Origin: Methylomonas sp.
GTDB taxonomy: Bacteria > Pseudomonadota > Gammaproteobacteria > Methylococcales > Methylomonadaceae
Reading direction: 5' to 3'
Assembly: GCA_002929135.1 (NCBI GenBank)
Contig: PESC01000056.1
Span: 1-64,000 of the forward strand
DNA length: 64,000 bases
Both the position numbers and the translations under genes were made by a program. Every line of letters starts with the position of its first letter. Within the stretch, counting starts at the first letter, position 1. Positions 38 through 58,813 of this stretch are shown here, piece after piece. Below the pieces are notes generated by a model. It searched no databases. It was not told where the DNA came from and saw nothing but the letters and a program-made list of their open reading frames with translations.

Positions 38-124
38 CACGCACACTCCTGCAAATGGTTGGATGCCTGTACTGTATCGAATCAGTTAGGGGGTTGCTAT
101 AAGCCGACGCCGACTGCCACAAGC

Positions 125-397: not shown

Positions 398-400
398 AAG

Positions 401-601: not shown

Positions 602-606
602 CCCTG

Positions 607-644
607 CCCGGGTAACAGCGCAATCCTTATGGATGTTACCCGGG
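607..644. repeat. 11-bp perfect inverted repeat, hairpin
   Basis: CCCGGGTAACA at 607-617 is matched by TGTTACCCGGG at 634-644. A second small stem (ATCC/GGAT around TTAT) lies in the loop. No T-run follows on either strand, so a classical terminator is unlikely. It sits between the small ORF and the Hsp70 operon end (603-881), a stretch where I see no gene. Confidence 0.5.
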
Positions 645-881
645 GATCTTTCCTTGGCGTCTTAATGCTCCATGTTCACGGGGGAGAGAACTTATTTCCA
701 TGATACCTGCGACTTTAGTGCAATTGCCATGCCATGTTATTTATGCCTGTTTTCCCCGGTTTTTCTGTTTCCTGACGGATGGAATCGCTTCATTTGACAC
801 TATCTGTGTTATTTAACAATGTAATCTCAACTTTGGACACTCAGCGCCGAGTCCGTCAGTCTGTTCCGACTCATGCCGCGC

Positions 882-3034: not shown

Positions 3035-3049
3035 GATTGCCTTTTGAGG

Positions 3050-3700: not shown

Positions 3701-4032
3701 GATGGGGTTTTGTTCAAGGTCGCGAGCGTCTGCTCGATTGAGAGAGTGTTCAACAGCTTGAGAAAATCATCCGCTGGCATGGGTTGCAGGCTGCCATCGC
3801 GCGCAAAAGCGCTGTCGAGCAGCGCGTCGAATGTTATGTCCGGAAAATCAAACAGGGCGTGACGCAGACGGCTGTCTTCGTCCTTGATCGCTTCGAACGC
3901 TTGCTGGATTTGCCGGAAACGCTGGGAATCGCGGTCGGGTGGATGGTCTTTCACTGCCTGGAGATAGGCGTTTTTGATGTCGGTGTCGGTGGCCTGCTCG
4001 GTTACACCCAGGATTTGATACGGTAAATTCAT
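3697..4032 (-). CDS. small J-domain co-chaperone
   Basis: This 111-residue protein consists of a J domain (about residues 1-60) and a short acidic tail. It lacks the Gly/Phe region, zinc fingers and C-terminal substrate domains of DnaJ. The signature loop between helices II and III reads HPPD (residues 30-33) instead of the canonical HPD, followed by RDSQRFRQIQQAFEAI, a normal helix III. J domains stimulate ATP hydrolysis by Hsp70. It sits 9 bases after the TPR gene and overlaps the GrpE-like gene by 4 bases. The extra Pro may be a subfamily trait or a change tuned to the partner Hsp70. Confidence 0.85.
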   Translation of the reverse strand: MNLPYQILGVTEQATDTDIKNAYLQAVKDHPPDRDSQRFRQIQQAFEAIKDEDSRLRHALFDFPDITFDALLDSAFARDGSLQPMPADDFLKLLNTLSIEQTLATLNKTPS

Positions 4033-4041
4033 GGCAATGGC

Positions 4042-6534
4042 TCAATTGAATGGAAACCGGGATTGCGGCGAGTCGTTTTCGAAGCGTTCGATGATGTCTT
4101 CGAAACGAATGCCGGTGTCGATCTTCAGTTCCCCGGCGCTGATAAACAGCACCATCGCGAACAGAGCATCTTCACTCGCGAACAAGCGTTCAAGACGTTG
4201 TGGATCGATGCGATCGGCATATTGACGGATGATTCTGGCCGCAAACTGATTCGGATCGGTTTTTTCTAGGATATGCCTGGCTCTGATGGCGATTCTCTCG
4301 AAAACTCTGTCAGGAATTTGGCCGAACAAGTCTTCGAGCACATCATCATTATTCTGGTCGGATTCATCGCTATCGAATGCCATGGATGGCAAAGGGTGTT
4401 GGGCCATTCTGGCCTGTTCGATCAGCCGGGTGAGCAGCATGACCGCTGTCTTGTCGTTGGCGTTACGGGCATTTTGAAGTGCCTGTTGCAAGCCGAACAA
4501 GTCCATGAAATTCAGGTTGCGGGCATCGCCCTGGCATTCGGCAAGCCGCTGGTAATACAGCCACACCGGTTTCCACCATTTTCTGTTCGCCAGTTTGGCA
4601 GAGTGTTTCAGCAGCTCGAAATGTCCTGCCGTTGCCAGGGTTTCGCACCACTTTTGCAACAAGGCTTCATGGTCGAGCAGCCATTCCACTGATTTCTTCA
4701 GCGGCGCCTTGATCTTGTCCAGAGCTTTCATCAGCAGGGTTCTGTCATCCAGTTGCCTGTCGTAGCCATCGATCAATGTCATCAGCCGTTCGAGTTCCGG
4801 GGCAGACAGCAAATAATCCTTGAACGCCGGTAGGGCGCGGGTCAGTGCCGTGGTTGGCACACCCAGCAGTCCGGCTTCGATCTGCGCCTGAAACTGCATG
4901 GCGACAGGGTCGGCATTGAGCTTGGTCAGCTTGTCAACGATGTGTTGCACACCTTGTTTTTTGTCCTCCGCCTGCCATAGGTAGAAACCGCGCAACAAAT
5001 CGGCCTGACCGAGCTGGTTTTTGTCGAGACTGAGTTGCTGGGCGGCCTGGATTTCCTTCTCCACCAGATGAAATTTGCCGGTTTTCAGCAAACGGCGGGC
5101 ATGAGCCATGTGGTTGCTGAACAGCAGTTGCTTGGCCAAAGTATTGACGGGGTCGATCTTCAACAGGGTTTTGGCATAAGCGGCGGCTTTTTTGAAGGAT
5201 TTGCGCCTGGCCGCCGATTGCGCCGCCCGCACCAGTAAATCGGTATCGGTGGGGAAGCGTTCCAGACTGCGTTCCAGCCAGTGCTCGTAATTTGCAAGGT
5301 TGGGCAGGTGATCTTCGTAAATACGCAACAGCTTTAGATGGCTTTGTTTGTCGTTCGGGTCGTATTCCAGGCTGTCGATCAGTGAGTCTGCCGCCTCTCT
5401 GTAAGGCTGCCTTTCGGCCATGTGCCTGAGTATCAGTGCGATTTTTTTGTCATTTGCCGGACGGTCTGTTTGCAGACTGTCGATACAGCGGTGCCAGAAA
5501 AACACGGCGTCGTAGCTGTTTTTGCTCTGATTCGCCAGTAAGGCTTGTAACCGGTTGTCTTCGAATGAATTTTTCGCCGGAAAGCACTTGAGATACTCCT
5601 TGTGGCCACCGGGATGATCGACCAGATATTGTAGGCAATAGGCTTGCGCGGCATCGGTTCCGAACAGGTCGCGATGGTTTAGTGCCAGCTCGAAGCGCAT
5701 CTTGTCGGTCAATGGGGTTTTTTGTTTGACCAGGGTTTCCAGCAGATTCAGGTGCTTGGCAGACAGGCCTCTGGCCTGACCGATGATCCGACGCTGATTG
5801 AGATCAAGGCCCGCCATGGCTGCGATGAAATCCGCGCCAGTTTGCCAGTACGCCAGGCAGGCGTCGGCCAATGGTCTGTAGGGCGATGTGGCGGGTATTT
5901 TGGATGCCATGGCCGAACCGTGTTCGAGAGCGCCGACATCCAGCCATTGCAGTTTCAGCAAGGTACGCAAGTCTCGAAACGGTGAGCGAAACGGCAGGTT
6001 TTTCAAGGCTGCGTTGCAGCGTTCCCGTTCGCCATTGCGGTAAGCCTCCAGTGCATCGCGCACTGTGTGCCAGTGCTTTGCCACGGCGGAATCGGGCGGT
6101 AACTGCGGCAGCAGCTCACTTGCACCGGTCACCAGCAAAACGCTCAGGCAAGCGGCCAGATCGGGGTAATCTTCATCCAGTTGCCGGGCATCGAAGTCTT
6201 TGAGCGCCGCATAAGCCTTGCGCGAGTTTTTGCTGGCCAGCAGCCACAGCACATAGCTATCGCGGGCTTGCAGCGGCGCTTCGCCATGGGCCGTATAGTT
6301 TTCCCACAGCACACAGGCTTCCTTGAACAGGGCCTTGCCTGCCATGGCTTTTGCCCGTTGCAGATAACAATCGGCCAGATAGCGTTTGTATTCGGCGTTA
6401 TTCGGCTGCTTCAGCAAGTCTTTGAACGCATCGCTGGCTTCTTTGTAACGCCGGGCGGCATAGTGGGCCAGGGCCGTTTGCTGCAAGCTCGCGTCAGTAA
6501 GCCCTGTCGACATCTTCTGGATGATTTTTTTCAT
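4042..6534 (-). CDS. large TPR-rich protein, first gene of the auxiliary Hsp70 operon
   Basis: This is an 830-residue cytosolic-looking protein with no signal peptide or membrane segment. It is almost entirely alpha-helical. Tetratricopeptide-like repeats are clear at the N-terminus (for example AHYAARRYKEASDAFKDLLK near residues 24-43) and again around residues 380-520. The last 150 residues are a less repetitive helical region with an acidic patch. TPR proteins commonly scaffold chaperone complexes. As the leading gene of the operon it may select clients for the Hsp70/J/GrpE set (inference). The ribosome binding site is weak, and the 111 bases upstream (6535-6645) should hold the operon promoter, though I see no convincing -35/-10 pair. 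Confidence 0.8.
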   Translation of the reverse strand: MKKIIQKMSTGLTDASLQQTALAHYAARRYKEASDAFKDLLKQPNNAEYKRYLADCYLQRAKAMAGKALFKEACVLWENYTAHGEAPLQARDSYVLWLLASKNSRKAYAALKDFDARQLDEDYPDLAACLSVLLVTGASELLPQLPPDSAVAKHWHTVRDALEAYRNGERERCNAALKNLPFRSPFRDLRTLLKLQWLDVGALEHGSAMASKIPATSPYRPLADACLAYWQTGADFIAAMAGLDLNQRRIIGQARGLSAKHLNLLETLVKQKTPLTDKMRFELALNHRDLFGTDAAQAYCLQYLVDHPGGHKEYLKCFPAKNSFEDNRLQALLANQSKNSYDAVFFWHRCIDSLQTDRPANDKKIALILRHMAERQPYREAADSLIDSLEYDPNDKQSHLKLLRIYEDHLPNLANYEHWLERSLERFPTDTDLLVRAAQSAARRKSFKKAAAYAKTLLKIDPVNTLAKQLLFSNHMAHARRLLKTGKFHLVEKEIQAAQQLSLDKNQLGQADLLRGFYLWQAEDKKQGVQHIVDKLTKLNADPVAMQFQAQIEAGLLGVPTTALTRALPAFKDYLLSAPELERLMTLIDGYDRQLDDRTLLMKALDKIKAPLKKSVEWLLDHEALLQKWCETLATAGHFELLKHSAKLANRKWWKPVWLYYQRLAECQGDARNLNFMDLFGLQQALQNARNANDKTAVMLLTRLIEQARMAQHPLPSMAFDSDESDQNNDDVLEDLFGQIPDRVFERIAIRARHILEKTDPNQFAARIIRQYADRIDPQRLERLFASEDALFAMVLFISAGELKIDTGIRFEDIIERFENDSPQSRFPFN

Positions 6535-6645
6535 TGCGCTGCCAATGCTGATTTTTCAGTTTGGTTGATCATAAATAATGATAAGGGCTGAACGGTTATT
6601 CCTGAACGATAATTTCTGAGCCTGTGCTGGATGCCAGTCAACGCA

Positions 6646-8013
6646 TCAAAAATCCGCCAGTACCGCCAACACATCCTGAACGCTGCTGACGGCGTGTATC
6701 GTCAGAGGCTTGACGGTTTCCTTCGGCAGATTGCTTTTCGGAATCACGGCGCGTTTGAAGCCGTGCTTGGCGGCCTCATTGAGTCGGGCGTGGCCATTGG
6801 CGACCGGGCGGATTTCGCCGTTCAAGCCAATTTCGCCGAAAAACACCGTGTCGTAAGGCACGATGCGATCACGCAGGCTGGACACCACGCCAACCAGAAT
6901 CGCCAGATCGCTGCTGGTTTCACTGACTTTGATGCCGCCCACCACGTTGGCGTAGATTTCATCGTTGCCGGTAAAAATGCCGCCATGGCGTGACAAAATC
7001 GCCAGTAACATCGCCAACCGGTTTTGATCCAGACCCACCGCCAGCCGCCTGGGGTTGCCGTACTGGCTTTCGGTGACCAGCGCCTGAATTTCCACCAGCA
7101 AGGGCCGCGTACCTTCCCACAAAACCGTCACCACGCTACCCGGCGAGGGCTTTTCCGCGCGTGACAAAAACATTGCCGACGGGTTTTTGACTTCCTTCAG
7201 CCCGCTGCTTTCCATCGCGAAAAACCCCAGCTCGCCGACACTGCCGAAGCGGTTTTTATCGGCCCGCAGCACCCGGAAACGGGCATCGTCGGTGGACGAT
7301 AATACGACTTGGGCATCAACGATATGACTCAGCGTCATCGGCCCGGCCAGTGATTGATCCTTGGTGACATGGCCCACCATAAAGAAAGCCACTCCGCTGC
7401 GCTTGGCGTATTGCGTCAGAAAGCTGGCCGATTCGCGCACCTGCGAAACCGAACCCGGCGCCGAATCGGTATCGGCGGTGTACATCACCTGAATCGAATC
7501 GATGATGACCACCTCGGGTTTTTCGTCGTCGAGGATTGCGCAAATCTGTTGTACCGATGTTTCGGCCAGCATGTTGATGCTTTGTGTATTCAGTTTCAGC
7601 CGATGCGCCCGTTCGGCAATCTGTTGCAGCGATTCCTCGCCCGACACGTACAGCACGGGCCGCTGCCCAGCAATATGGGCAATGGTCTGCAACAACAACG
7701 TACTCTTGCCAGCGCCCGGCGCGCCGCCGATCAAGGCCACACTGCCTTTGACGATGCCACCGCCCAGCACCCGGTCGAATTCGGTCAGGCCGGTCGATAA
7801 TCTTTCCGCCTGCGCCAAATCGACATCCGCCAGCCGTTGTACGCCGCTTCTGCTACCGGCATAACCTGTGTGCTCGCGCAGCGTCTTCTGGCTGCCCAAG
7901 TGCACTTGCTTGATGCTGTTCCACTCGCCGCACTGGCTGCATTGCCCAGCCCAGCCGGGATAATCGGCACCGCACGCCGTGCAGACAAAGGCCGATTTCT
8001 GCTTTTTAGCCAT
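6646..8013 (-). CDS. radA: DNA repair protein RadA/Sms
   Basis: RadA is a RecA-like ATPase that promotes branch migration in recombinational repair. The 455-residue protein has an N-terminal C4 zinc finger (Cys11, 14, 25, 28), a Walker A GGAPGAGKST near residue 98, the RadA-specific KNRFGS motif and a C-terminal Lon-like domain. The start is set at ATG 8013-8011, giving MAKKQKSAF, the normal N-terminus. Longer readings upstream only translate the end of alr. It overlaps alr by 8 bases and is third in a dnaB-alr-radA operon. Confidence 0.95.
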   Translation of the reverse strand: MAKKQKSAFVCTACGADYPGWAGQCSQCGEWNSIKQVHLGSQKTLREHTGYAGSRSGVQRLADVDLAQAERLSTGLTEFDRVLGGGIVKGSVALIGGAPGAGKSTLLLQTIAHIAGQRPVLYVSGEESLQQIAERAHRLKLNTQSINMLAETSVQQICAILDDEKPEVVIIDSIQVMYTADTDSAPGSVSQVRESASFLTQYAKRSGVAFFMVGHVTKDQSLAGPMTLSHIVDAQVVLSSTDDARFRVLRADKNRFGSVGELGFFAMESSGLKEVKNPSAMFLSRAEKPSPGSVVTVLWEGTRPLLVEIQALVTESQYGNPRRLAVGLDQNRLAMLLAILSRHGGIFTGNDEIYANVVGGIKVSETSSDLAILVGVVSSLRDRIVPYDTVFFGEIGLNGEIRPVANGHARLNEAAKHGFKRAVIPKSNLPKETVKPLTIHAVSSVQDVLAVLADF

Positions 8014-9103
8014 GATGATCGTCGATGATGGCCACGCGCTGGGTGATGCCGCACAGCAAGGTGTAGGGAATGGTATCGGCATGAAGGGCCACTTCCTCGA
8101 CGGCAAGGCCGTCACCCCACAATACGACGGGATCGCCTGGCCTGGCCTCCGGCTGGCTGCCCAGATCGACCGTTATCATGTCCATCGACACCCGGCCAAT
8201 CAACGGCACACGCTTGCCGTTGACCAGCACCGGTGTGCCGCTGGCGGCATGGCGATGATAGCCGTCGCCATAGCCGATCGAAACCACGCCCAGCCGGGTG
8301 GGTGCCTGGCAAAGCCATGTACCGCTGTAACCCACGGTTTCGCCGACGGCGATGTCCTTGACCGCAATCAGTCGTGAATGCAGACTCATCACCGGCTTCA
8401 GGCCGAAATCGGCACCGGTCTTGCCAGCGAACGGCGAGCAGCCATACAGCATCAGACCGGGCCTGACCCAATCGATACGGTTGCCCACGCTTAGGGTCGG
8501 CCAACCCATGATGCCGGCCGAATTGGCGATGCTGCGTTCGCCGGGGTAATCCTTGACCGCCTCGTTGAACCAATCGATCTGCCGACGGGTTTTGTCATCG
8601 AGCAGATCGTCGGCATTGGCGAAATGGGTAATCAAATGGATGGGTTGCTGCACGGCGGCGCAGGCCAGCAAGGCTTGATAGGCGGCGTTGAAGTCAGCGC
8701 CCTTGAAGCCTAGGCGATTCATGCCGGTGTCCATTTTCAGCCAGATGCTTAACTGTCCAGGGCCGACATGCTGTTGCAGCATGGCGATCTGCTGCGGCGT
8801 ATGCACCACCGCCGCCAGTTGCTGTTGCAACAACAATCGCAGTTCATCGGTGCAGACAAAACCCTGCAACACCGTGATCGGTTGGGTGAAGCCCGCGCGG
8901 CGCAACTTGACGCCTTCATCGACACGGGCGACGGCAAAACCATCGGCATTTTGCAGTGCCGATGCGACGCGTTCTATGCCGTGACCATAGGCGTTGGCCT
9001 TGATGACGGCCATGATGCAGGCATTCGGTGCGTAGCAACGTACCTGGGCCAGATTGTGCCGGGCTGCATCCAGATCAAGATGGACATAGGCGGCGGGTGT
9101 CAT
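8006..9103 (-). CDS. alr: alanine racemase
   Basis: This PLP enzyme interconverts L- and D-alanine for peptidoglycan. It has 365 residues, typical for the family. The PLP-binding lysine lies in AVIKANAYGHG (Lys35) and the second catalytic residue is the Tyr of VGYSGTW in the C-terminal beta domain. It overlaps dnaB by 4 bases upstream and radA by 8 bases downstream. dnaB followed by alr is a common gammaproteobacterial order. Confidence 0.95.
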   Translation of the reverse strand: MTPAAYVHLDLDAARHNLAQVRCYAPNACIMAVIKANAYGHGIERVASALQNADGFAVARVDEGVKLRRAGFTQPITVLQGFVCTDELRLLLQQQLAAVVHTPQQIAMLQQHVGPGQLSIWLKMDTGMNRLGFKGADFNAAYQALLACAAVQQPIHLITHFANADDLLDDKTRRQIDWFNEAVKDYPGERSIANSAGIMGWPTLSVGNRIDWVRPGLMLYGCSPFAGKTGADFGLKPVMSLHSRLIAVKDIAVGETVGYSGTWLCQAPTRLGVVSIGYGDGYHRHAASGTPVLVNGKRVPLIGRVSMDMITVDLGSQPEARPGDPVVLWGDGLAVEEVALHADTIPYTLLCGITQRVAIIDDHHG

Positions 9104-49369: not shown

Positions 49370-50568
49370 CCGCAACCTTCTGGATCATCATCGGCCTGAT
49401 GCTGGTGCTCGCCGTCGCCATCGTCACCGTACCGTTGTGGTGGCGCAGCCGTCGCATCGACGACGACCACAAACAGCGCAACATTGCCATTGCCCGGCAA
49501 CGACTGGCCGAACTGGATGCGCAAAAAAACAGTGGCGTGTTGTCTGAGGCAGCGTTCGACGAGTGTTACCGAGAACTCAAGGTTTTGTTGAGCGATGATC
49601 TGGCCGCAGAACCCGCCGAAGTGACATCGGCAGCCACGCAGGGCCGCTGGATTGCGCCACTGTTGATGACGGCCATTCCGGTTCTGAGCCTGTATCTGTA
49701 TTTCACCCTGGGCGATGCCAACGCCCAGCGCAAGCTGGCGGCGCAACAAACCGCAGAACAGGGCGCTCAAGACATCGAAGCCATGCTGGGCAAACTGGTG
49801 GCCAAACTCGAACGCAACCCGGACGACACGGAAGGCTGGCTGATGTTGGGGCGAGCCTACAGCTACCTGCAACGCCACGACCAGGCAGCCCAGGCGTTTG
49901 CCGAACTGTACAAGCGCAAACCCGATGATGTCGAAGCCCTGTTGCAGTATGCCAACAGCCTGGCACTGGCGCGGGATGGCCGGGTGAGCGGCGAACCCGA
50001 GCAACTGGTCGAGCAGGTGTTGCGCAAGGAACCCGCCAACGCCAACGCCTTGTGGCTGGCCGGCATGGCCAGAATGGAGCAGGGGCGTCTGGACGAAGCC
50101 GCCGCACTTTGGCATCAGCTCGTGCCATTGCTGCCCCCTGATTCGGAATCCTTGCAACAGGTTCAAGCCATGTTGCAGTCGCTGGAGCAGCAGATGGCCG
50201 CAACCTCATCGGCAGCCGCGCCGCTACGCATCAGCGTCAAGGTCGATGTCGTTCCCGCCGCCAAGAGCCGGGCCGATGCGGCGCAAACCGTGTTCATTTA
50301 CGCGCAAGCCATCGACGGCCCCAAAATGCCGCTGGCCATCGTCCGCAAACAACTTGCCGATTTGCCGGTCGAGGTCGTCCTCGACGATACGGCAGCCATG
50401 CAGCCCGGCACTCGCCTGGCTGATTTTCCCAGGCTGCGCATCGTGGCCAGGCTTTCGCAGTCTGGTCAGGCCATGCCCGCTGCGGGCGACTGGCTGGGCA
50501 GCGTCGAAATCGAGCGGCCCCTGGGCAGCCACCCCGTCACCGTTCTAATCGATCAGGAGATCAAATGA
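49366..50568 (+). CDS. ccmI: cytochrome c biogenesis TPR protein CcmI
   Basis: This 400-residue protein starts with GTG, overlapping ccmH by 4 bases. It has two N-terminal TM segments with a conserved cytosolic loop (about 25-95), then TPR units (for example GWLMLGRAYSYLQRHDQAAQ) and a C-terminal beta domain. It binds the apocytochrome C-terminus and delivers it to CcmF/H. Confidence 0.9.
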   Translation: MTATFWIIIGLMLVLAVAIVTVPLWWRSRRIDDDHKQRNIAIARQRLAELDAQKNSGVLSEAAFDECYRELKVLLSDDLAAEPAEVTSAATQGRWIAPLLMTAIPVLSLYLYFTLGDANAQRKLAAQQTAEQGAQDIEAMLGKLVAKLERNPDDTEGWLMLGRAYSYLQRHDQAAQAFAELYKRKPDDVEALLQYANSLALARDGRVSGEPEQLVEQVLRKEPANANALWLAGMARMEQGRLDEAAALWHQLVPLLPPDSESLQQVQAMLQSLEQQMAATSSAAAPLRISVKVDVVPAAKSRADAAQTVFIYAQAIDGPKMPLAIVRKQLADLPVEVVLDDTAAMQPGTRLADFPRLRIVARLSQSGQAMPAAGDWLGSVEIERPLGSHPVTVLIDQEIK

Positions 50569-51947
50569 TGGACCAATCAATCCAGTTCGACCTCGATCTC
50601 ATCAAACGCTACGACAAATCCGGGCCGCGCTACACCTCCTACCCAACCGCTCTGGAGCTGCACGAAGGCTTTGGCGACACCGACTACCGAAGGCAAATCG
50701 CCGCCTCCAATGCCGCAGGCGGCCCGCTGTCGCTGTATTTCCACATTCCGTTTTGCGACACGGTGTGCTTTTACTGCGCCTGCAACAAAATCATCACCAA
50801 GAATCGTGCGCATTCCACACCTTACCTCGACAATCTGGTCAAGGAAATCGCCCTGCAGGGCGCCTTGTTCGACAGCGATCGCGTCGTCAACCAACTGCAT
50901 TGGGGTGGCGGCACGCCGACCTTCCTGAATCCAGAACAAATGAAGCGGCTGATGGACGCCACCCGCCAGCACTTCAATCTGCGTGACGACGACCAGGGCG
51001 AATACTCCATCGAAGTCGATCCGCGCGAAACCCGGCAAGACACCATCGCACAATTGCGCCAACTGGGTTTCAATCGCATCAGCCTGGGCTTGCAGGATTT
51101 CGACCCCGACGTGCAAAAAGCCGTCAACCGCATTCAAGGCAAGCAACAAACCTTTGCTGTACTCGACGCCGCCCGCAAGGAAGGCTTTCGTTCCACCAAT
51201 ATCGACCTGATTTACGGACTGCCGAAACAGACCGAAGACACTTTTTCACGGACGTTGGCCGACGTTCTGGATTACTCACCGGATCGCTTCTCGATTTTCA
51301 ACTACGCCCACATGCCCAGCCGTTTCAAGACGCAACGGCAAATCAACGAGGCCGATATGCCCGCGCCAGCAGTCAAGCTGGAAATCCTGCAAAGGGTAGG
51401 CCGCATGCTGACCGAGGCGGGCTACGTCTACATCGGCATGGATCATTTCGCCAAACCGGACGACGAACTGGCCGTGGCGCAGCGGCAAGGCAAGCTGTAC
51501 CGCAATTTTCAGGGCTATTCGACCCATTCCGATTGCGACCTGGTTGGCCTGGGCATCACCTCGATAGGCCGTGTCGGCGACGCCTACATCCAGAACGTCA
51601 AGGAGCTCGATCAGTACGATGACTTGATAGGGCAGGGCAGCTTGCCGGTGTTTCGCGGCGTAGAACTCGATGCCGACGACAGGCTCAGACGCGCCGTCAT
51701 CACCCAGATCATCTGCCATTTCGAACTGACTTACCGCACCATCGAGCAGGCGTTCGCCATTCGATTCAGCGATTATTTCGCCGCCGAACTTGAGCAACTG
51801 GCAGAGATGCAAAACGACGGCCTGCTGACACTGAACAGCGAAGGCATTCAGGTATCGACGGCAGGTCGCTTGCTGATAAGAAACATCTGCATGGTTTTCG
51901 ACCGATACCTGGCACAAAAGCAGCAACAGTTCTCGAAAGTCATTTGA
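50565..51947 (+). CDS. hemN: oxygen-independent coproporphyrinogen III dehydrogenase
   Basis: This radical-SAM enzyme performs anaerobic heme synthesis. The 460-residue protein has the cluster motif CxxxCxxC (Cys64, Cys68, Cys71) and the full HemN N-terminus KYDK/RYDKSGPRYTSYPTA. Its ATG overlaps ccmI by 4 bases, so heme supply is tied to cytochrome c maturation, an uncommon but logical extension of the ccm operon. Its stop is 6 bases from the left repeat of the defence island. Confidence 0.95.
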   Translation: MMDQSIQFDLDLIKRYDKSGPRYTSYPTALELHEGFGDTDYRRQIAASNAAGGPLSLYFHIPFCDTVCFYCACNKIITKNRAHSTPYLDNLVKEIALQGALFDSDRVVNQLHWGGGTPTFLNPEQMKRLMDATRQHFNLRDDDQGEYSIEVDPRETRQDTIAQLRQLGFNRISLGLQDFDPDVQKAVNRIQGKQQTFAVLDAARKEGFRSTNIDLIYGLPKQTEDTFSRTLADVLDYSPDRFSIFNYAHMPSRFKTQRQINEADMPAPAVKLEILQRVGRMLTEAGYVYIGMDHFAKPDDELAVAQRQGKLYRNFQGYSTHSDCDLVGLGITSIGRVGDAYIQNVKELDQYDDLIGQGSLPVFRGVELDADDRLRRAVITQIICHFELTYRTIEQAFAIRFSDYFAAELEQLAEMQNDGLLTLNSEGIQVSTAGRLLIRNICMVFDRYLAQKQQQFSKVI

Positions 51948-51953
51948 CGATTG

Positions 51954-51984
51954 CGGCTCAGCCGCCTGCCATGATCGGGAGCAT
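51954..51984. repeat. left att-like direct repeat (marC 3'-end relic)
   Basis: CGGCTCAGCCGCCTGCCATG and onward match 58174-58204 in the same orientation, with 26 of 31 positions identical. Read on the minus strand it encodes MLPIMAGG-stop, compared with LFPILAGG-stop at the end of the intact marC gene. It is therefore a relic of a marC-type 3' end, not chance. It also forms a small GCGGCT/AGCCGC stem just after hemN. Confidence 0.7.
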
Positions 51985-52060
51985 ACGCGTGGCGAAGGTT
52001 TCTGATCTGATTCTGCCGGTCGCGTAGGGGTGAGCAATCGAACAATGAGGAGCGTAACCA

Positions 52061-52261
52061 ATGCTTGGACTGACTTTGACCGACATCCCTTTCGTGCCTC
52101 CAGTCGCATTGCAAATCGACCGCCCGCACGGCGTACACCTGCTGACGCTGGGCCGCAGAAAGTGGCGTAGCCAGGGCGGTTACCCAACGCTGACGCACGG
52201 CGGCCTCTCGCTGCTGGAGGTGCTGTCGCCGTTTGTTGAACTATCCAGAACCGGAGGCTGA
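52061..52261 (+). pseudogene. PglZ-like C-terminal fragment
   Basis: This is a 66-residue ORF. GGYPTLTHGGLSLLEVLSPF resembles the last strands of PglZ alkaline-phosphatase-like proteins (HGGxSxxExxxPxx), which are normally 600-900 residues long. The catalytic body is absent. GAGGAG lies 8 bases upstream, and its stop is one base before the ATG of the next gene, whose ribosome site lies inside this ORF. The fragment may thus be kept as a coupling leader. The assignment is by motif only. Confidence 0.5.
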
Positions 52262-52262
52262 C

Positions 52263-53978
52263 ATGGCGGCTACCCATTTCAACACCGAGAACCGCACCTA
52301 TCGGCAGCTATTGGGCAACGGCCTGACCTACCGCATTCCGCACTTTCAACGCGACTACTCCTGGGGCGAAGAAGAATGGGAAGACCTTTGGGCCGACATC
52401 CAGAGCACCTTGCCTACCGATGGCGAGCCTGCCCACTACCTAGGCTATCTGGTGCTGCAAACGGCGGATAACCGAATCTATGAAGTGATCGATGGCCAAC
52501 AAAGGCTGACGACCATCAGTTTGATCGTGCTGGCCACCATGCGACTGCTCGGCAAATTAGCCGATGAGGGGGGGAAAAAGGACAACAATCGAACGCGACT
52601 CGAACAACTACGCGCCACCTACATTGGCTACCTTGACCCGGTAACACTGACCACCCGCAACAAACTTTCGCTGAATCGCAACAACGACAGCTATTACCGA
52701 GACTATCTGGTGGCGCTGGCCGAGCATCTGCCGCAACGCGGTTTTCCAGCCTCCACGCACGCGATGCGCAAGGGTTTCGAATGGTTCGAGCGTCGTTTGC
52801 GCGAGCAGGTCAAGAATGCGGCTGACCCTGGCATGGCGCTGGCGCAGTTTGTCGAAACCCTCAGCGACAAGCTGTTCTTTACGGTCATCACCGTCGCCGA
52901 TCAACTCAACGCCTACAAGGTCTTTGAAACGCTCAATGCCCGTGGCGTGCGCCTGTCGGCTACCGATCTGCTGAAAAATTACCTGTTTTCCGTGCTGGCG
53001 CGCGGCGATGAAGCCACGCATGAAATGGATGAACTGGAACGTCGCTGGGAAGTGATCGTAGATCGCCTTGGCAGCGAGAGCTTCCCGGATTTCTTGCGCA
53101 TGCACTGGAACAGCCGCCAGAGTTTTGCCCGGCAGACCGAGCTATTCAAGGTTGTTCGTAGCCGCATCCAGGCCCGCGAGGCCGTCTTCGCTTTATTGCG
53201 TGAGATGGACGAGGACATCGACACCTATCTGGCGCTGACCCAACCAGAGGGCGCGCAATGGATTCCCGCCTGGAAGCAAAGCGCACAAGAACTACGCATG
53301 TTTTCCGTGCGCCAGCCCTACCCGATGTTGATGGCCGCCAAACGCAATTTGTCCGATGCCGATTTTGGCGACTTATTGCGCGCCACGGTGGTCATCGCCT
53401 TCCGCTACAACGTCATTGGCGCCCAGCATACCGGTGAGCAGGAACGTGTCTATCACGCAGCCGCCATGCAGTTGCATAACAAGGAAGCCGCCACGCTCGG
53501 GCAGGTACTGGCCACGCTGCGGCAGGTCTATCCGGGCGATGACGCATTCAAGACCGACTTTGCCGAAAAGGTCATCAAGACCACCCAGAGCCGCAACGCC
53601 AAGATCGTGCGCTATATCCTGTGCAAACTGGAGAAGCAGGCCGACGGCATCGACTTCGATGCAGACTCCCCCAGCTATACCATCGAGCATGTACTGCCAC
53701 AATCGCCAGAAGGCGGCTGGGATGCGTTCAATGATCGCGATCTGGAAGCCTTTGTCTATCGGTTGGGCAACATGGCGATGCTGGAAGCGGGCAAAAACAA
53801 AGCGATCGGCAACCAACCCTATGCGGGCAAGCGCCCGGTTCTGCAACAGAGCACCCTGCAACTGACCCAAAAACTGGCGGCAGAAAACGCCGACTGGCTT
53901 CCCGAAAGGCTGGCTGCCCGGCAAAAACAACTTGCAAACCTCGCCACCAGCGTGTGGCGCATCGCCCAGCTTTCTTGA
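52263..53978 (+). CDS. GmrSD-type protein: DUF262 + DUF1524 (HNH) fusion
   Basis: This is a 571-residue predicted type IV restriction-like enzyme. The N-terminal DUF262 (GmrS-like) domain has YRIPHFQRDYSW (23-34) and IDGQQRLTT (76-84), thought to bind and hydrolyse nucleotides. The C-terminal DUF1524 (GmrD-like) domain has IEHVLPQS (His476) and the RLGNMAMLEAGKN block of the HNH nuclease fold. Such proteins cleave modified phage DNA or act in abortive defence. GGAGG lies 5 bases before ATG 52263. It is the first full gene of the island operon. Confidence 0.85.
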   Translation: MAATHFNTENRTYRQLLGNGLTYRIPHFQRDYSWGEEEWEDLWADIQSTLPTDGEPAHYLGYLVLQTADNRIYEVIDGQQRLTTISLIVLATMRLLGKLADEGGKKDNNRTRLEQLRATYIGYLDPVTLTTRNKLSLNRNNDSYYRDYLVALAEHLPQRGFPASTHAMRKGFEWFERRLREQVKNAADPGMALAQFVETLSDKLFFTVITVADQLNAYKVFETLNARGVRLSATDLLKNYLFSVLARGDEATHEMDELERRWEVIVDRLGSESFPDFLRMHWNSRQSFARQTELFKVVRSRIQAREAVFALLREMDEDIDTYLALTQPEGAQWIPAWKQSAQELRMFSVRQPYPMLMAAKRNLSDADFGDLLRATVVIAFRYNVIGAQHTGEQERVYHAAAMQLHNKEAATLGQVLATLRQVYPGDDAFKTDFAEKVIKTTQSRNAKIVRYILCKLEKQADGIDFDADSPSYTIEHVLPQSPEGGWDAFNDRDLEAFVYRLGNMAMLEAGKNKAIGNQPYAGKRPVLQQSTLQLTQKLAAENADWLPERLAARQKQLANLATSVWRIAQLS

Positions 53979-53986
53979 GACGACCA

Positions 53987-54322
53987 ATGGCCACCAAAAA
54001 ACAAATACTCGCTCAGGAAGTCGCCAAAGCCGTCGGCGCAGGCAAGGCGGTTGCGCTTGAAACCGTCGATTTCAACGATACGAACCGTCCCAAGACTTGT
54101 CTGGAGGTGGATTTTCCGATCCTGCCTGTCAACAGCATCGCGCACTTCAAATCACATGTGGCGCTTAAAGCCCTGCTGGAATGGTTGCAGAAGAACGGCC
54201 CGGATCAAACCACCCGCAATGCGGCCTCGCGTACGGTGGCTATCCTCAATACCTGGCAAGCCAGCCAGGCACCCAAGCCGCAGCAGGGTTCGCTGTTTGA
54301 TGACAATAGGGCGTATGCGTAA
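53987..54322 (+). CDS. small protein resembling an internally deleted DUF1156 methylase
   Basis: This 111-residue protein starts 8 bases after the GmrSD-like gene. Residues 31-43 (PKTCLEVDFPILP) look like the opening of DUF1156/COG1743 DNA methylases, which run to about 900 residues, but no SAM or NPPY motif follows. The rest (LLEWLQKNGPDQTTRNAASR, then QGSLFDD) resembles a protein C-terminus, so an in-frame deletion of a methylase is one reading. The alternative is a genuine small protein. The stop overlaps the next ATG (TAATG), so it is translated with its neighbours. Confidence 0.6.
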   Translation: MATKKQILAQEVAKAVGAGKAVALETVDFNDTNRPKTCLEVDFPILPVNSIAHFKSHVALKALLEWLQKNGPDQTTRNAASRTVAILNTWQASQAPKPQQGSLFDDNRAYA

Positions 54323-55524
54323 TGCAGCCATTCACAGACGATCAACTTCACCCATTGCTGACAGACCTTGAATCTGACCGGGTCGAGCGCAAGGAATCCT
54401 TGCGCGGAAAATCCCCTGAAGCCGTGCGCGAGGCGGTGTGTGCCTTTGCCAATGACCTGGCCGGGCATGCCGCACCGGGAGTGGTGCTGATTGGTGTACG
54501 CGATGACGGCACACCCATGGAGGGTTTTGCGGTGACCGACGAGTTGTTGCGACAGTTGGCCGACATCAAGACTGACGGCAACATCGTGCCACCGCCATCG
54601 CTGTTGGTTGAGAGGCGTCTGATTCAGGGCCGTGACGTGGCGGTGATTACTGTCTGGCCCTGCGATACGCCGCCGGTTCGCTACAAGGGGCGCATTCATG
54701 TGCGCTGGGGGCCGCGCAGAGGATTGGCGGTCGCGCAGGATGAACGCATTCTCAACGAACGGCGCCGCCATCGGGACAAACCGTTCGATATTCAGCCGGT
54801 GCCATCGGCTACTTTGGCGCAATTGAGCCGGGTGCGCTTCGAGCATGAATACCTGCCCGCGTTGGTGGCCCCCGATGTGATTGAAGCCAATGAACGAAGC
54901 TACGAACAGAAGCTGGCGGCGACCAAGATGATCGTAGATGAGGCCGATCCGATACCCACGGTGCTGGGTCTTTTGACACTGGGCAACAAGCCATCGGATT
55001 ACATTCCCGGGGCTTATGGCCAGTTTCTGCGCTTCAGAGGAACGGATGCGGCATCGGAGGTTCTGGACGAAGCTACTATTCAGGGCACTGTGAGTGAGCA
55101 GATTCGGCGCATGGAAGAAAAGCTGGCGGCACACAATGTCCGCCGGGTGCGCTTTGTGGATGTGCAAACCGAGCAGCGTCACGATGACTATCCGGCAGAG
55201 GCGCTGCATCAACTGGTTCGCAACGCCTATCTGCACCGGAGCTACGAAAATACCCATGCGCCCGTCCGCGTTTATTGGTTTGACGACCGTATCGAGATCA
55301 GTAACCCCGGCGGGCCTTATGGCAGTGTCACGATCGATAATTTCGGGCAGCCCGGATTGGCTGATTACCGCAATCCGAATCTTGCTGAATCCATGCGTGC
55401 CTTGGGCTGGGTGCAGCGCTTCGGTGCTGGCATCGTCATCGCCCGCAAAGTGTTGGGGGCACGCTTGAGCTTCGATGTCCAAGCTACGGCGGTGATTGCC
55501 AAAATTCGCTTGGAGACTACCTGA
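54322..55524 (+). CDS. AlbA_2/Schlafen-type ATP-binding protein
   Basis: This is a 400-residue protein. An N-terminal AlbA_2 domain has DRVERKESL and CAFANDLAGHAAPGVVLIGV (about 19-60). A middle helical region follows, and a C-terminal segment (ALHQLVRNAYLHRSYENTHA, then IEISNPGGPYG) looks like a GHKL/HATPase_c_4 fold. Proteins of this type are RNA/DNA-binding regulators or effectors and are frequent in defence islands; some Schlafen proteins cleave tRNA. A nuclease role is not shown here. It is coupled on both sides (TAATG and TGATG). Confidence 0.8.
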   Translation: MQPFTDDQLHPLLTDLESDRVERKESLRGKSPEAVREAVCAFANDLAGHAAPGVVLIGVRDDGTPMEGFAVTDELLRQLADIKTDGNIVPPPSLLVERRLIQGRDVAVITVWPCDTPPVRYKGRIHVRWGPRRGLAVAQDERILNERRRHRDKPFDIQPVPSATLAQLSRVRFEHEYLPALVAPDVIEANERSYEQKLAATKMIVDEADPIPTVLGLLTLGNKPSDYIPGAYGQFLRFRGTDAASEVLDEATIQGTVSEQIRRMEEKLAAHNVRRVRFVDVQTEQRHDDYPAEALHQLVRNAYLHRSYENTHAPVRVYWFDDRIEISNPGGPYGSVTIDNFGQPGLADYRNPNLAESMRALGWVQRFGAGIVIARKVLGARLSFDVQATAVIAKIRLETT

Positions 55525-56036
55525 TGCGACAAATCATCGATACGGTATGGCAACGGCGCGGCACCAGCTGGTTGTGGGATGAGGACGCACGCAACACAGT
55601 GTGCGCGGCGGGCGAGGTGTGGAGCTTGCGGCAGTTTTTGCAGGCCGCGATTCCGAATGGGAATGGTTGGCCAGAAGACCTGCCCAGCAACGACAACCAG
55701 ACGTTGGTGGTGGCAGGTCTTGAAGGCAGCCTTGACTTGCTGGCTCCCGATCAGGGTGAAATCTGGCTGGGCGACACCATCAAACACGCCATCCTGTCGT
55801 TTCAGGACGCCTACGCGGGCGAGGCCGCGCTGATTTTCTGGCTACCGCAGGGGCATAACCGTATCAAGGTGCAGACGTCCAGCGATGCGGTGAGCTGGCT
55901 TTGCGAAGCCCCGCACCGGGGCAGCCAGATCGACTTTGGCCGCTTGCTTTGGGGTGAGGCCCGCGAGTATCCGCAGGAAATCCGGCTGCGCGAGGGCGGC
56001 AAATCGGCGGGGCTGTTTCATTTGCGGATTACTTAG
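55524..56036 (+). CDS. unrecognised 170-residue defence-island protein
   Basis: This soluble protein has no signal peptide and no membrane segment. It is rich in Trp (8) and predicted to be mostly beta, with a mid-segment WLGDTIKHAILSFQDAYAGE and a later FWLPQGHNRIKVQTSS. I recognise no family. ATG 55524 overlaps the previous TGA, and the AAA ATPase follows after 9 bases, so it is part of the operon. It could be an accessory or specificity subunit of either the AlbA_2 protein or the ATPase pair. Confidence 0.75.
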   Translation: MRQIIDTVWQRRGTSWLWDEDARNTVCAAGEVWSLRQFLQAAIPNGNGWPEDLPSNDNQTLVVAGLEGSLDLLAPDQGEIWLGDTIKHAILSFQDAYAGEAALIFWLPQGHNRIKVQTSSDAVSWLCEAPHRGSQIDFGRLLWGEAREYPQEIRLREGGKSAGLFHLRIT

Positions 56037-56045
56037 GAGGCTGCG

Positions 56046-57116
56046 ATGAGAACCTTACGCATGGTCAAAATCGAGGGGTTCAAATCCATTTCAAGCGCAG
56101 AGCTGACGCTGGGTGACATTAATGTGATCATCGGTGCGAACGGATCGGGAAAATCGAATCTGATTGGCGTCTTCCGCCTCTTGGAGCGGGTGCTGACGCA
56201 CAACCTCCAACTTTACGTGGCCAGCGAGCCGGATCGGTTTTTACACCACGGACGCAAAACCACGCCCGCGCTGGCACTCGATTTTGTCTTCGACGAGAAC
56301 GCCTATGGCTTCAAACTCAAAACCGCGCAGGACAGGTTGATCTTCGAGTACGAACGTGTGGAATATAGCGGTTTTTGGAACTATGGCGAGCCAATTGCTG
56401 CAGGGCACAAGGAAAGCAAGCTGGAGGATGCCGCGCAGTCGTATCACAACAAGATCCCGATGCACGTATTCCCAAAAGTGCGGAATCTGGTGGTTTATCA
56501 CTTCCACGACACCTCGGATACCTCGCCAGCCAAACAAACCTGCGATCTATCAGATAACCGTAGCTTCCGTCCGGATGCCGCCAATTTACCAGCTTACCTG
56601 TACTGGTTGCAGGAGAAACACCCGGCGCAGTTCCGTCACATCGAAGAGCATATCCGGCTGGTAGCACCGTTTTTTGATCGTTTCGAGCTGGCCCCTTCGC
56701 GCCTGAACGAACAGAAAATCAAGCTTGAATGGCGACAAAAAGGATCGGACGCCTATTTCGATGCCTACTCACTATCCGATGGCACGATACGTTTTATTTG
56801 TCTGGCGACTTTGTTGTTACAACCCAAACCGCCTGCACTGATTTTGATGGATGAGCCCGAGCTAGGTCTGCATCCATTTGCCATTCGCATCCTGGCCGAA
56901 ATGATCGAGGCAGCATCAAAGCGCGTACAGGTGATTCTGGCAACGCAATCAGTCACGTTGTTGAACAATTTCGAGCCCAAAAGCGTGATTGTGGCCGAAA
57001 ACGATGGCCTCAAGACCACGTTTAATCGGCTGGACGAGGAGAAACTCAAGCACTGGCTGGATGAATTTAGCATCGGCGAGCTGTGGGAGAAGAATGTGCT
57101 GGGAGGCCGGCCATGA
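56046..57116 (+). CDS. AAA-15/21 ABC-like ATPase (OLD/RloA-like)
   Basis: This is a 356-residue single-polypeptide ABC-type ATPase with Walker A GANGSGKSN (30-38), a short helical insert in place of the coiled coil, signature-like SLSDGTIRF, Walker B LILMDEPELGLHP (Asp269, Glu270) and the ATQSVTLLNNF switch. It has no nuclease domain of its own. A strong AGGAGG site precedes the ATG. It overlaps the DUF4276 gene by 4 bases. Such pairs behave like split OLD nucleases or abortive-infection modules. Confidence 0.87.
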   Translation: MRTLRMVKIEGFKSISSAELTLGDINVIIGANGSGKSNLIGVFRLLERVLTHNLQLYVASEPDRFLHHGRKTTPALALDFVFDENAYGFKLKTAQDRLIFEYERVEYSGFWNYGEPIAAGHKESKLEDAAQSYHNKIPMHVFPKVRNLVVYHFHDTSDTSPAKQTCDLSDNRSFRPDAANLPAYLYWLQEKHPAQFRHIEEHIRLVAPFFDRFELAPSRLNEQKIKLEWRQKGSDAYFDAYSLSDGTIRFICLATLLLQPKPPALILMDEPELGLHPFAIRILAEMIEAASKRVQVILATQSVTLLNNFEPKSVIVAENDGLKTTFNRLDEEKLKHWLDEFSIGELWEKNVLGGRP

Positions 57117-57787
57117 CACGGCTTTTGATGCTGGTAGAAGGCCAGTCGGAGGAGATTTTTGTTAATCGAACACTAAAACCTTACCTTGCGGAACGGGGTG
57201 TCTTTATCGAAGGGCCGATTGTGTTGTGGACAAAGCGTCTTCCGAGTGGAGGCGGCTATCGCGGCGGCGTATCTAGCTGGAAAAAGATTCAAGATAACCT
57301 GCGGCCATTGACCAAGGATGGCAATGCTTGGGTTACAACGTTGCTCGACTTTTACGGTTTGCCGGAAGATGTACCCGGCTTCCAGGCAGCGCGAGGCCCG
57401 GGCAATCCTCGCGATAATGTCCTTGCACTTCAAGAGCGGTTGGCTGTTGAGATCAATCACCCGAGGCTCATCCCTTTTCTGGCCCTGCATGAATTTGAAG
57501 CATGGGTTTTTTGTGCTCCGGATGTCGTGGCCACGCATTTTGATCTGCCTACCGTGGCGCAAAAAGTTCAGCAAGCTATCGCCCATGCCGGTGAGCCAGA
57601 GCTTATCAATCACGGGGAAACTACCCACCCCAAAGCGCGCTTGAAGGCGATGGTAAAGAGCTACAAGGAAACTTCTGACGGCCCCACCTTGATGGACAAA
57701 ATCGGCATTCCAGCCATTCGTGTCGCTTGCCCGCATTTCGCAGGCTGGCTGCAACGCCTGGAAGCCCTGGGTAGGGACGCGCAGTGA
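57113..57787 (+). CDS. DUF4276 protein, Toprim-like partner of the ATPase
   Basis: This 224-residue protein begins MTRLLMLVEGQSEE, a Toprim-like VEGxSE motif (Glu9, Glu13, Glu14). LLDFYGLPEDVPGF and LALHEFEAWVFCAP are typical DUF4276 blocks with acidic residues suited to metal binding. DUF4276 genes usually sit beside an AAA ATPase, as here (ATGA overlap). Together they probably form a nuclease effector triggered by the ATPase (inference). Confidence 0.85.
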   Translation: MTRLLMLVEGQSEEIFVNRTLKPYLAERGVFIEGPIVLWTKRLPSGGGYRGGVSSWKKIQDNLRPLTKDGNAWVTTLLDFYGLPEDVPGFQAARGPGNPRDNVLALQERLAVEINHPRLIPFLALHEFEAWVFCAPDVVATHFDLPTVAQKVQQAIAHAGEPELINHGETTHPKARLKAMVKSYKETSDGPTLMDKIGIPAIRVACPHFAGWLQRLEALGRDAQ

Positions 57788-58173
57788 CGGATGTCGTGTC
57801 TTTATTCAACCCGGCGAACGTATCACCCGCCACGAATCCGGCTAGGGTGTCGTTCTTGACCCGGCGCACGATGGCTACTTGCACGTTTTCTTCGGTGTGG
57901 GCGAGCGCCGCAGCTCTCACGCACCGAGCGCATCCTGATTGCCTTGGCGGCGGGCCCGGATCTGCGCCGCCAAGGCAATCAGGGGCGTACGTTCGGTTTT
58001 TTGATGGCTATCTTCCAGAAAATCGCGGCATCGCTTTGCCGCCGCACGCTCAAGCGCCGTCTGCTGATGCTGACACTTTGTTGCTGCGCGCGGGAGCGAG
58101 GAAAACTGTGCGTGAATCGCTATAAATTTCTTCTTCCGCTGGGGAGAGCGAAGCCGTTAGGGTGAGGGACAGT
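57788..58173. other. island right flank without a recognised gene
   Basis: The stretch has short open frames on both strands but no ribosome sites or recognisable products. It holds the strong hairpin at 57932-57981, a T-run at 57992-57997, and near its end a CTTCCGCTGGGGAGAGCGAA segment that resembles common intergenic repeats. No integrase or recombinase is present. Confidence 0.5.
57932..57981. repeat. 19-bp perfect inverted repeat, probable operon terminator
   Basis: CCTGATTGCCTTGGCGGCG (57932-57950) is exactly inverted at 57963-57981 with a 12-base loop. It lies 145 bases past the DUF4276 stop and is followed, after about 10 bases, by TTTTTT. It may end the defence operon or be a mobile-element relic. 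Confidence 0.7.
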
Positions 58174-58204
58174 CGGCTCAGCCGCCCGCCAGTATCGGGA
58201 ACAG
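58174..58204. repeat. right att-like direct repeat (3' end of marC)
   Basis: CGGCTCAGCCGCCCGCCAGT and onward are the last codons of marC plus four bases past the stop. It pairs with the copy at 51954-51984. Together they bound the defence island. Confidence 0.7.
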
Positions 58205-58813
58205 TTCACTTGCCCCGCTGGCGATGAACTCGACGGCAAACGATGTCAGCAACAGGCCCATGACCCGTGTCACCACATTCATGCCGGTTTGGCCCATGAC
58301 GATGACGATGCGCTGCGCCAGCAGCAGCGTGACCAGTACGATGAGGCTGATCGAAACGATGACCGCGCTGAACAGCAGGTAATGCGCCAGCGATAAATCG
58401 CGCTGGGCGAAGACGATGGTGGTGCTGATCGCGCCGGGGCCGGCCAGCAACGGGATGGCCAGCGGCACCACGGCCACCGACGATTTGTCGTGCGATTCCG
58501 CGTTTTCTTCCGGCGTGTGGCGCGAGCGGTCGTCGCTTACCCGCAGCATCGAAATACCCATTAACAGCAGCAATACGCCACCGGCGACACGGAATGCCGA
58601 CAGTCTGATCCCCAGAAAATGCAGGATAGGCTCACCGCCCACCAGGGCTATGAACAGCACCATCGCCACGGCAAACGCTGTAACCATGGCGGTACGTCGG
58701 CGTTCAGCCGGGGTTTTGCGGGCGGTCAGCGACAGAAACAGCGGCATCGCTCCGCCTGGATTCACCACGGCAATCAAGCCAATCAGTAGCTGTGCGTATT
58801 CGTTCCAGTTCAT
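58178..58813 (-). CDS. MarC/UPF0056 family membrane protein
   Basis: This 211-residue protein has six predicted TM segments. GLIAVVNPGGAMPLFLSLT and IPLLAGPGAISTTIVFAQRD are MarC signatures. Its substrate is unknown, and the old link to antibiotic resistance is not supported for this family. Its 3' end is the proposed insertion site of the adjacent island. It is 94 bases downstream of cysN on the same strand. Confidence 0.9.
   Translation of the reverse strand: MNWNEYAQLLIGLIAVVNPGGAMPLFLSLTARKTPAERRRTAMVTAFAVAMVLFIALVGGEPILHFLGIRLSAFRVAGGVLLLLMGISMLRVSDDRSRHTPEENAESHDKSSVAVVPLAIPLLAGPGAISTTIVFAQRDLSLAHYLLFSAVIVSISLIVLVTLLLAQRIVIVMGQTGMNVVTRVMGLLLTSFAVEFIASGASELFPILAGG

What the first reader, a model, noticed from the sequence alone, without database searches (positions are those of the whole stretch)
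51954..58204. Defence island bounded by imperfect direct copies of a marC 3' end
A 31-bp segment at 51954-51984 matches 58174-58204 (26/31), and both translate to nearly the same marC C-terminus (PI-M/L-AGG-stop). Insertion at a gene 3' end that leaves the old tail at the far side is the signature of site-specific integration. The cargo is seven genes or fragments that look like anti-phage functions. No integrase remains, so this may be an immobilised element or a hot spot where cargo is swapped by homologous recombination.
Basis: partly seen in the sequence, partly recalled or inferred. Interest (0 to 1): 0.85.

Follow-up and report, generated by a model that had tools for sequence, protein, structure and literature searches.

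The report
Gutted defence operon, cargo kept intact
The stretch is the wreck of a large anti-phage system: its main enzymes are cut down to stubs, while the smaller defence genes that had been nested inside it look untouched, which suggests that these can work without it.

Summary
The repeat is real. The 31-bp pair at 51954 and 58174 (26/31) is the only match of 22 or more in the window, and 0 of 3000 random pairs of 200-bp ends reached it. The insertion model is not borne out. hemN and marC lie 0.41-2.63 Mb apart in the 8 same-genus genomes with both on one contig. 0 of 19 marC loci have a downstream tail copy above 21/31. No PF00589 integrase match is on this contig.

The cargo is the main finding. 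A same-genus genome, G027, carries an intact system fitting published Type-3 BREX-related (BR) systems. In the window its ATPase and PglZ-like genes are one 66-aa stub, its methylase a 111-aa stub (both in frame), its helicase a pseudogene. GmrSD, AlbA/Schlafen-HATPase, a 170-aa protein, an OLD-type ATPase and DUF4276 stay full length, pairwise dN/dS 0.07-0.13. The 3-4 small lesions counted lie in the 273-bp helicase remnant; 5,178 bp of cargo have no stop or frameshift. Another genus of the family, G237, keeps an intact IetAS pair between stubs of the same system. Accessory defences may outlive their host system; autonomous function is inferred.

The parts
50565..51947 (+). hemN, left chromosomal flank (ccm-hemN block conserved in relatives)
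   Evidence: NCBIfam TIGR00538 E 5.8e-193; synteny
51954..51984 (-). left copy of the marC 3' tail (MLPIMAGG-stop), 6 bp after the hemN stop
   Evidence: 26/31 to 58174-58204
52035..52075 (+). leader and first 5 codons of the DUF499-type ATPase gene
   Evidence: 85% to L151 108-148, E 4e-6; 79% to L101, E 0.004; leader block found in 5 of 16 loci given
52061..52261 (+). 66-aa in-frame stub: ATPase start fused to the last ~54 residues of the PglZ-like protein; junction 52076-52086
   Evidence: PglZ block from 52087 (or 52089) in 14 of 16 loci given; 91% aa over 54 residues to G027
52263..53978 (+). GmrSD-type (DUF262/HNH) restriction enzyme, HEC-06; full length
   Evidence: Pfam PF03235 3.5e-38, PF07510 4.8e-28; PADLOC HEC-06 3.7e-229; 80% aa to G054 over 571/571
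53987..54322 (+). 111-aa in-frame stub of the DUF1156-type methylase: about the first 49 residues fused to about the last 58; junction 54133-54143
   Evidence: In the 13 loci with both blocks the head block ends at 54132 and the tail block starts at 54144 or 54146
54322..55524 (+). AlbA_2/Schlafen with HATPase_c_4; full length; also next to the methylase in G082 and G309
   Evidence: Pfam PF04326 5.5e-13, PF13749 6.6e-14; 72% and 68% aa
55524..56036 (+). 170-aa conserved core-locus protein, full length; perhaps the iSTAND subunit (by elimination)
   Evidence: 33 of 39 available sequences aligned, 28 invariant columns; iSTAND tests inconclusive
56046..57116 (+). OLD-type/AAA_21 ABC ATPase, HEC-01A; full length
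   Evidence: PADLOC HEC-01A 1.2e-141; 92% aa to G027, dN/dS 0.074
57113..57787 (+). DUF4276 protein, HEC-01B; full length
   Evidence: Pfam PF14103 5.9e-46; PADLOC 4.2e-71; dN/dS 0.107
57805..58077 (+). helicase pseudogene: part of the head and one middle block, with a nonsense codon at 57843 and several small deletions
57934..57983 (.). hairpin with 18-bp perfect arms at the helicase deletion junction; the left arm reads as an inverted copy of the right-hand helicase block
   Evidence: self-match; fold z -5.07, 0 of 200 shuffles as good; comparison with relatives
58174..58204 (-). right copy: 3' end of intact marC and the bases just after its stop
58178..58813 (-). marC, right chromosomal flank (next to cysN as in relatives)
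   Evidence: Pfam PF01914 3.5e-53; 84% to G028; synteny

Best explanation
The segment is a decommissioned Type-3 BREX-related (BR) defence locus. Shown by comparison: an ancestral operon of the kind intact in G027 lost its enzymes by internal deletions. About 3.6 kb from ATPase codon ~6 to near the end of PglZ is gone in frame, and about 2.9 kb inside the methylase in frame. Most of the helicase is gone, with an inverted copy left at the junction and further small lesions. The genes nested between and behind these (GmrSD, AlbA/Schlafen, 170-aa protein, OLD-type ATPase with DUF4276) kept full length and a low pairwise dN/dS. Inferred: they are still expressed as one translationally coupled operon, the in-frame stubs being tolerated or favoured because they keep ribosomes running into the next gene. 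They protect without the methylase or PglZ: GmrSD by cutting modified phage DNA, the ATPase pair and the Schlafen-type protein by abortive responses. How the segment came to lie between hemN and marC is open; the duplicated marC tail fits an old insertion, but no machinery for it was seen.
For: Intact homologue with the same order in G027 and full-length core genes in many other relatives. Homology blocks end within 11 bases of each other at the first two junctions. No other copy of the core in the own genome at DNA level (40 of 48 candidates scored, genome 95.9% complete). Helicase lesions against intact cargo: 3-4 lesions, all in 273 of 5,451 bp, conditional P 1.3e-4 to 6.3e-6. dN/dS: 170-aa 0.082, ATPase 0.074, DUF4276 0.107 (vs G027), AlbA 0.13 (vs G082), GmrSD 0.092 (vs G054). 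The ATPase keeps stretches around Walker A and B invariant in 5 of 5 sequences (motif names recalled). Overlapping or near-touching stops and starts along the operon. Independent parallel: G237 has one 271-aa ORF of HTH + ATPase 558-660 + PglZ 234-339, full-length IetA and IetS, then a methylase head stub. Possible third case: Rhizobium CF122 L179 keeps the 170-aa protein between a methylase tail and a helicase head.
Against: dN/dS is pairwise and includes time before the gutting; the stubs themselves are equally low (0.05-0.08), so the gutting may be recent and the cargo may simply not have decayed yet. The lesion count is small, from one remnant, and depends on the alignment. In-frame junctions: 4 of 4 upstream of retained cargo (window 2, G237 2), chance 0.012, but noticed after the fact, and the frames in L179 were not examined. 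No promoter-like site was listed upstream of the stub (from 51850). The window is a contig of a 63-contig assembly, so a chimeric join cannot be excluded. Most relatives are intact: of 12 order genomes with the PglZ tail 2 are gutted; 7 of the other 10 were checked for architecture, 3 were not. The 170-aa protein's iSTAND identity has no direct support.
Confidence: 0.8

Rival explanations
1. One reading: a mobile island integrated by an integrase at the marC 3' end, leaving the displaced tail beside hemN, then lost its integrase.
For: Tail duplication above chance (with only 2 of 10 candidates scored); 13 identical bases including the stop; left-tail stop 10 bp from the hemN stop; differences within the tail are conservative at protein level. 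The principle is described for tRNA genes in the Islander abstract (PMC4383910).
Against: No PF00589 match on the contig; hemN and marC not adjacent in the relatives seen; 0 of 19 marC loci with a tail repeat above 21/31; only 26/31; by my reading the left copy resembles marC no further upstream.
Confidence: 0.35
2. Two-step rearrangement: the BR locus lay at another place, and a genome rearrangement later joined the hemN and marC neighbourhoods around the relic; the tail repeat arose by a local templated duplication like the one seen in the helicase.
For: The flanking blocks are far apart in relatives; an inverted copy is visible at the helicase junction.
Against: It needs a tail copy to land within 6 bp of hemN; no intermediate was seen.
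Confidence: 0.4
3. Plain neutral decay: the whole locus is dead and the cargo simply has not yet broken.
For: The stubs are as conserved as the cargo, so the gutting may be recent.
Against: 3-4 lesions in 273 bp of helicase against no stop or frameshift in 5,178 bp of cargo; G237 shows the same pattern with other cargo.
Confidence: 0.2
4. Assembly chimera or misassembly of a draft genome.
For: 63 contigs; an adjacency not seen in relatives.
Against: In-frame fusions and operon spacing preserved; no second copy of these genes found in the assembly; parallel case in G237.
Confidence: 0.07

Closest known systems
Type-3 BREX-related (BR) systems (PMC12839542; passages seen)
   Same: Intact relatives have the DUF499-type ATPase, a standalone PglZ-like protein, a methylase and a BrxHII-like helicase; the cargo types (GmrSD, OLD-ABC pairs, Schlafen with minimal kinase domain) are catalogued there as auxiliary or backup effectors of BREX and BR systems.
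   Different: In the window all four enzymes are stubs or a pseudogene; only the auxiliaries and the 170-aa protein remain. DUF4276 is not named in that paper's main text.
Hma system and Hma-embedded candidates HEC-06, HEC-01 (PADLOC; PMC8565338 and PMC12988326, passages seen; the HEC preprint itself was not read)
   Same: Cargo proteins match HEC-06 and HEC-01A/B models strongly; a passage in PMC12988326 says that several HECs including HEC-06 showed antiviral activity.
   Different: HECs were found by their embedding in a host system; here the host system is gone. PADLOC's HmaA and HmaB match the G027 helicase and methylase only partly, and no PADLOC model matched its ATPase at E 1e-5.
IetAS in the gutted BR locus of G237
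   Same: A full-length two-gene defence (IetA 1.9e-145, IetS printed as 0) framed by stubs of the same BR system.
   Different: Other cargo, other genus, other neighbours; only the slot between PglZ and methylase is kept.
Genomic islands at gene 3' ends (Islander, PMC4383910, abstract passage)
   Same: A duplicated gene 3' end marks both ends of the segment.
   Different: A protein gene, an imperfect repeat, no integrase seen, no empty site known.

Membership tests
Type-3 BR system | DUF499 AAA+ ATPase | tested here: not met
   Only leader and ~5 codons remain; the intact G027 copy matches DUF499 at 1.9e-7
Type-3 BR system | standalone active PglZ | tested here: not met
   54 of 340 residues remain; even the G027 copy has no Pfam match and no PADLOC match at 1e-5
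Type-3 BR system | DUF1156-type N6 methylase | tested here: not met
   about 107 of 1069 residues remain; the G027 copy hits N6_N4_Mtase 7.6e-7, DUF1156 only at 0.0078, below its cut-off
Type-3 BR system | BrxHII-like helicase without nuclease fusion | tested here: not met
   pseudogene; the intact G027 copy matches PADLOC BrxHI/BrxHII 2.2e-103
Type-3 BR system | iSTAND subunit | tested here: inconclusive
   170-aa protein full length; 0 PADLOC families in 33 members at E 1; no PDB fold match at E 0.001, best E 0.19, query TM at most 0.26 in the 50 listed; profile search of the PDB gave 3 short matches over ~37 columns (two designed Scone proteins, one PQQ-named protein), best E 1.7e-6 with no stretch passing alone; assigned by elimination
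HEC-06 / GmrSD | GmrSD_N and HNH-type C-terminal domain, full length | tested here: met
   IDGQQR and EHVLPQ stretches visible (motif meaning recalled)
HEC-01A/B | AAA_21 ATPase next to DUF4276 | tested here: met
Integrase-generated island at a gene 3' end | duplicated target 3' end at both ends | tested here: met
Integrase-generated island at a gene 3' end | integrase in or beside the element | tested here: not met
   PF00589 only; serine recombinases not searched
Integrase-generated island at a gene 3' end | empty site in relatives, or the site reused | tested here: not met
   0 of 19 marC loci, no adjacency; no close strain available

The most novel reading that the evidence does not exclude
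Gutted BR loci are a stable, selected state: the embedded defences, perhaps with the 170-aa iSTAND-like sensor, form a smaller self-sufficient immune operon, and the in-frame stubs of the dead core are kept as translational connectors and as homology arms for swapping new cassettes in and out.
Probability: 0.15. Interest if true: 0.75.

Novelty: new variant of a known kind. Interest (0 to 1): 0.48.

Why it matters
The published BREX/BR survey (passages) reads nested nucleases and ATPase pairs as backup effectors of the host system. A locus whose core is gone while the nested genes stay intact, seen in two genera with different cargo, suggests that they can be autonomous, and gives a natural core-less construct to test. 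It also shows how orphan embedded defences may arise, and warns that fragments at an island's edges can be the ends of dead core genes.

Tried and rejected
Rejected: marC as a general integration hot spot. The left tail as part of the BR leader: relatives' leaders align only from about 52032-52036. A second BR core elsewhere in the genome (DNA level, 40 of 48 candidates scored). The methylase-tail hit in G091, which lies in a DUF433-like ORF by my reading (name recalled). G240: by my reading of the ORFs the locus is interrupted by transposase-like genes, not cleanly gutted; these were not searched against a library, and G240 is not counted as a parallel. The right intergenic piece as a repeat: only weak matches. 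Rfam: none at the gathering cut-off. iSTAND identity of the 170-aa protein: inconclusive; the best of five AlphaFold models has pLDDT 84.3, the others 61-72. Plasmid search with the ATPase: 252 records, all below 60% identity, so no near mobile relative there. Paper searches on ietAS/BREX/remnant (3 papers), pseudogenized defence (0), lost core genes (0) and marC with integration terms (8 of 196 shown; 'marc' also matches unrelated words) listed no report of gutted BR loci with intact cargo or of islands at marC; for these I saw listings and abstract starts only.

Full report
OBSERVATION. Across the window 5 direct pairs reach 26/31: three are a REP-like repeat, one looks like chance, one is this pair. 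Each copy's second-best match in the window, both strands, is 21/31. Among 3000 random pairs of 200-bp ends the best was 24/31. A BLAST of 51930-52062 against the own genome lists only the right copy besides itself, E 0.0019, with 2 of 10 first-look candidates scored. So the duplication is very probably real.

INSERTION MODEL. In relatives hemN follows ccm-type genes and marC follows cysN, as in the window, but in different places. Of 19 same-genus genomes with a strong marC and a full-length hemN, 8 hold both on one contig, 0.41-2.63 Mb apart, and 11 on different contigs (positions; G014, G015 and G017 left out as weak or lacking one gene). 0 of 20 fetched hemN loci contain marC and 0 of 19 marC loci contain hemN (downstream stretches 0.2-8 kb and 0.3-17 kb). 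No marC locus of 19 has a downstream tail copy above 21/31, direct or inverted. The 6 PF00589 matches of the genome are on other contigs; serine recombinases were not searched. No genome close enough to show this lineage's own empty site was seen; the nearest marC is 84% identical. The model is possible but unsupported.

WHAT THE CARGO IS. G027, same genus, holds at C1:1498000-1517900 (L101) an operon of HTH, DUF499-type ATPase, PglZ-like protein, a 321-aa protein, methylase, 170-aa protein, AAA_21 ATPase, DUF4276 and SNF2-type helicase, downstream of F-type conjugation genes TrbC, TraU and TraN. The PglZ name rests on weak PADLOC and NCBIfam matches of the window stub (E about 0.006) and on the locus type; the G027 protein itself had no Pfam match and none in PADLOC at 1e-5. 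The arrangement fits the Type-3 BR systems of PMC12839542 (passages). Other relatives show the same order with variable slots: PglZ followed directly by the methylase in G074, AlbA after the methylase in G082 and G309, ATPase + DUF4276 in G293 and L161.

THE GUTTING. The window's 66-aa ORF is the ATPase start joined in frame to the end of PglZ (junction 52076-52086). Its 111-aa ORF is the methylase head joined in frame to its tail (junction 54133-54143). 57805-58077 is a helicase remnant with a nonsense codon at 57843, a 25-bp deletion and smaller ones. At the helicase junction an 18-bp stretch is present as an inverted copy, giving a hairpin with z -5.07; I read this as template switching. 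Relative to L151 about 3.6 kb and 2.9 kb are missing at the first two junctions. No other copy of the core was found in the own genome at DNA level (40 of 48 candidates scored; genome 95.9% complete).

THE CARGO IS INTACT. GmrSD, AlbA/HATPase, 170-aa, ATPase and DUF4276 are open over full length and match relatives end to end or nearly so. Pairwise dN/dS is 0.07-0.13. The 3-4 small disabling lesions counted all lie in the 273-bp helicase remnant; 5,178 bp of cargo have no stop or frameshift (conditional P 1.3e-4 for 3, 6.3e-6 for 4). Against this: the stubs are as conserved as the cargo (dN/dS 0.05-0.08), so the gutting may be young, and the lesion count depends on the alignment.

A PARALLEL. 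Of 311 order genomes, 12 carry the PglZ tail. The window and G237 are gutted; G027, G074, G082, G309, G096, G285 and G293 have ATPase, PglZ and methylase at full or nearly full length (the G309 helicase matches in two pieces); G141, G125 and G097 were not checked. In G237 one 271-aa ORF joins HTH, an ATPase piece and the PglZ tail; then come full-length IetA and IetS and a methylase head stub. 13 order genomes matched the methylase tail: 10 in long frames, the window stub, G240 (interrupted), and G091, which I reject. An even draw of 369 class genomes gave 4 matches to the PglZ tail including the window; the other three were not checked. Among 30 loci with the 170-aa protein in named genomes, several of them cut by contig ends, L179 of Rhizobium sp. 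CF122 keeps it between a methylase tail and a helicase head only.

MECHANISM. Shown: deletion of the core by comparison with relatives, integrity of the cargo, overlapping or close stops and starts. Inferred: continued expression by read-through from hemN or an unseen promoter (none listed upstream), translational coupling through the stubs, and defence by GmrSD against modified DNA and by the ATPase pair and Schlafen-type protein through abortive responses (from the named families and PMC12839542 passages). In-frame junctions upstream of kept cargo: 4 of 4, chance 0.012, noticed after the fact.

STATUS. The window locus fails the defining features of a Type-3 BR system (four core enzymes absent) and is a relic of one. 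It also fails two of three tests for an integrase-made island. Its parts are known kinds; the gutted-but-loaded state is the new point. I found no report of it in the searches, which cover only the open-licence library and of which I saw listings only.

Noticed in passing
L182 (G237:C150), 4485-8969: Full-length IetAS pair framed by a fused HTH-ATPase-PglZ remnant and a methylase head stub: a second gutted BR locus.
   Followed up: yes
L101 (G027), 103-5707: The intact BR operon lies just downstream of F-type conjugation genes (TrbC, TraU, TraN), which suggests carriage by a conjugative element.
   Followed up: partly
L179, 9621-10884: Rhizobium CF122 keeps only the 170-aa protein between a methylase tail and a helicase head: perhaps a third gutted locus.
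   Followed up: partly
window 10825, 14586, 16825, 16909, 22351: REP-like palindromic repeats (GTTCCCACGC...GCGTGGGAA) in several copies.
   Followed up: no
window 55524-56036: The 170-aa family has 28 invariant columns in 33 sequences, but its window member has no match in Pfam or NCBIfam at E 0.01 or in PADLOC; best AlphaFold model pLDDT 84, only weak RecA-like fold matches.
   Followed up: partly
window 57934-57983: 18-bp inverted copy at the helicase deletion junction, a likely template-switch scar.
   Followed up: yes
L090 (G035:C1:3850972-3851128): A 157-bp match (71%) to the HATPase part of the window's AlbA gene lies about 2 kb downstream of marC in G035, without a tail repeat there.
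   Followed up: partly
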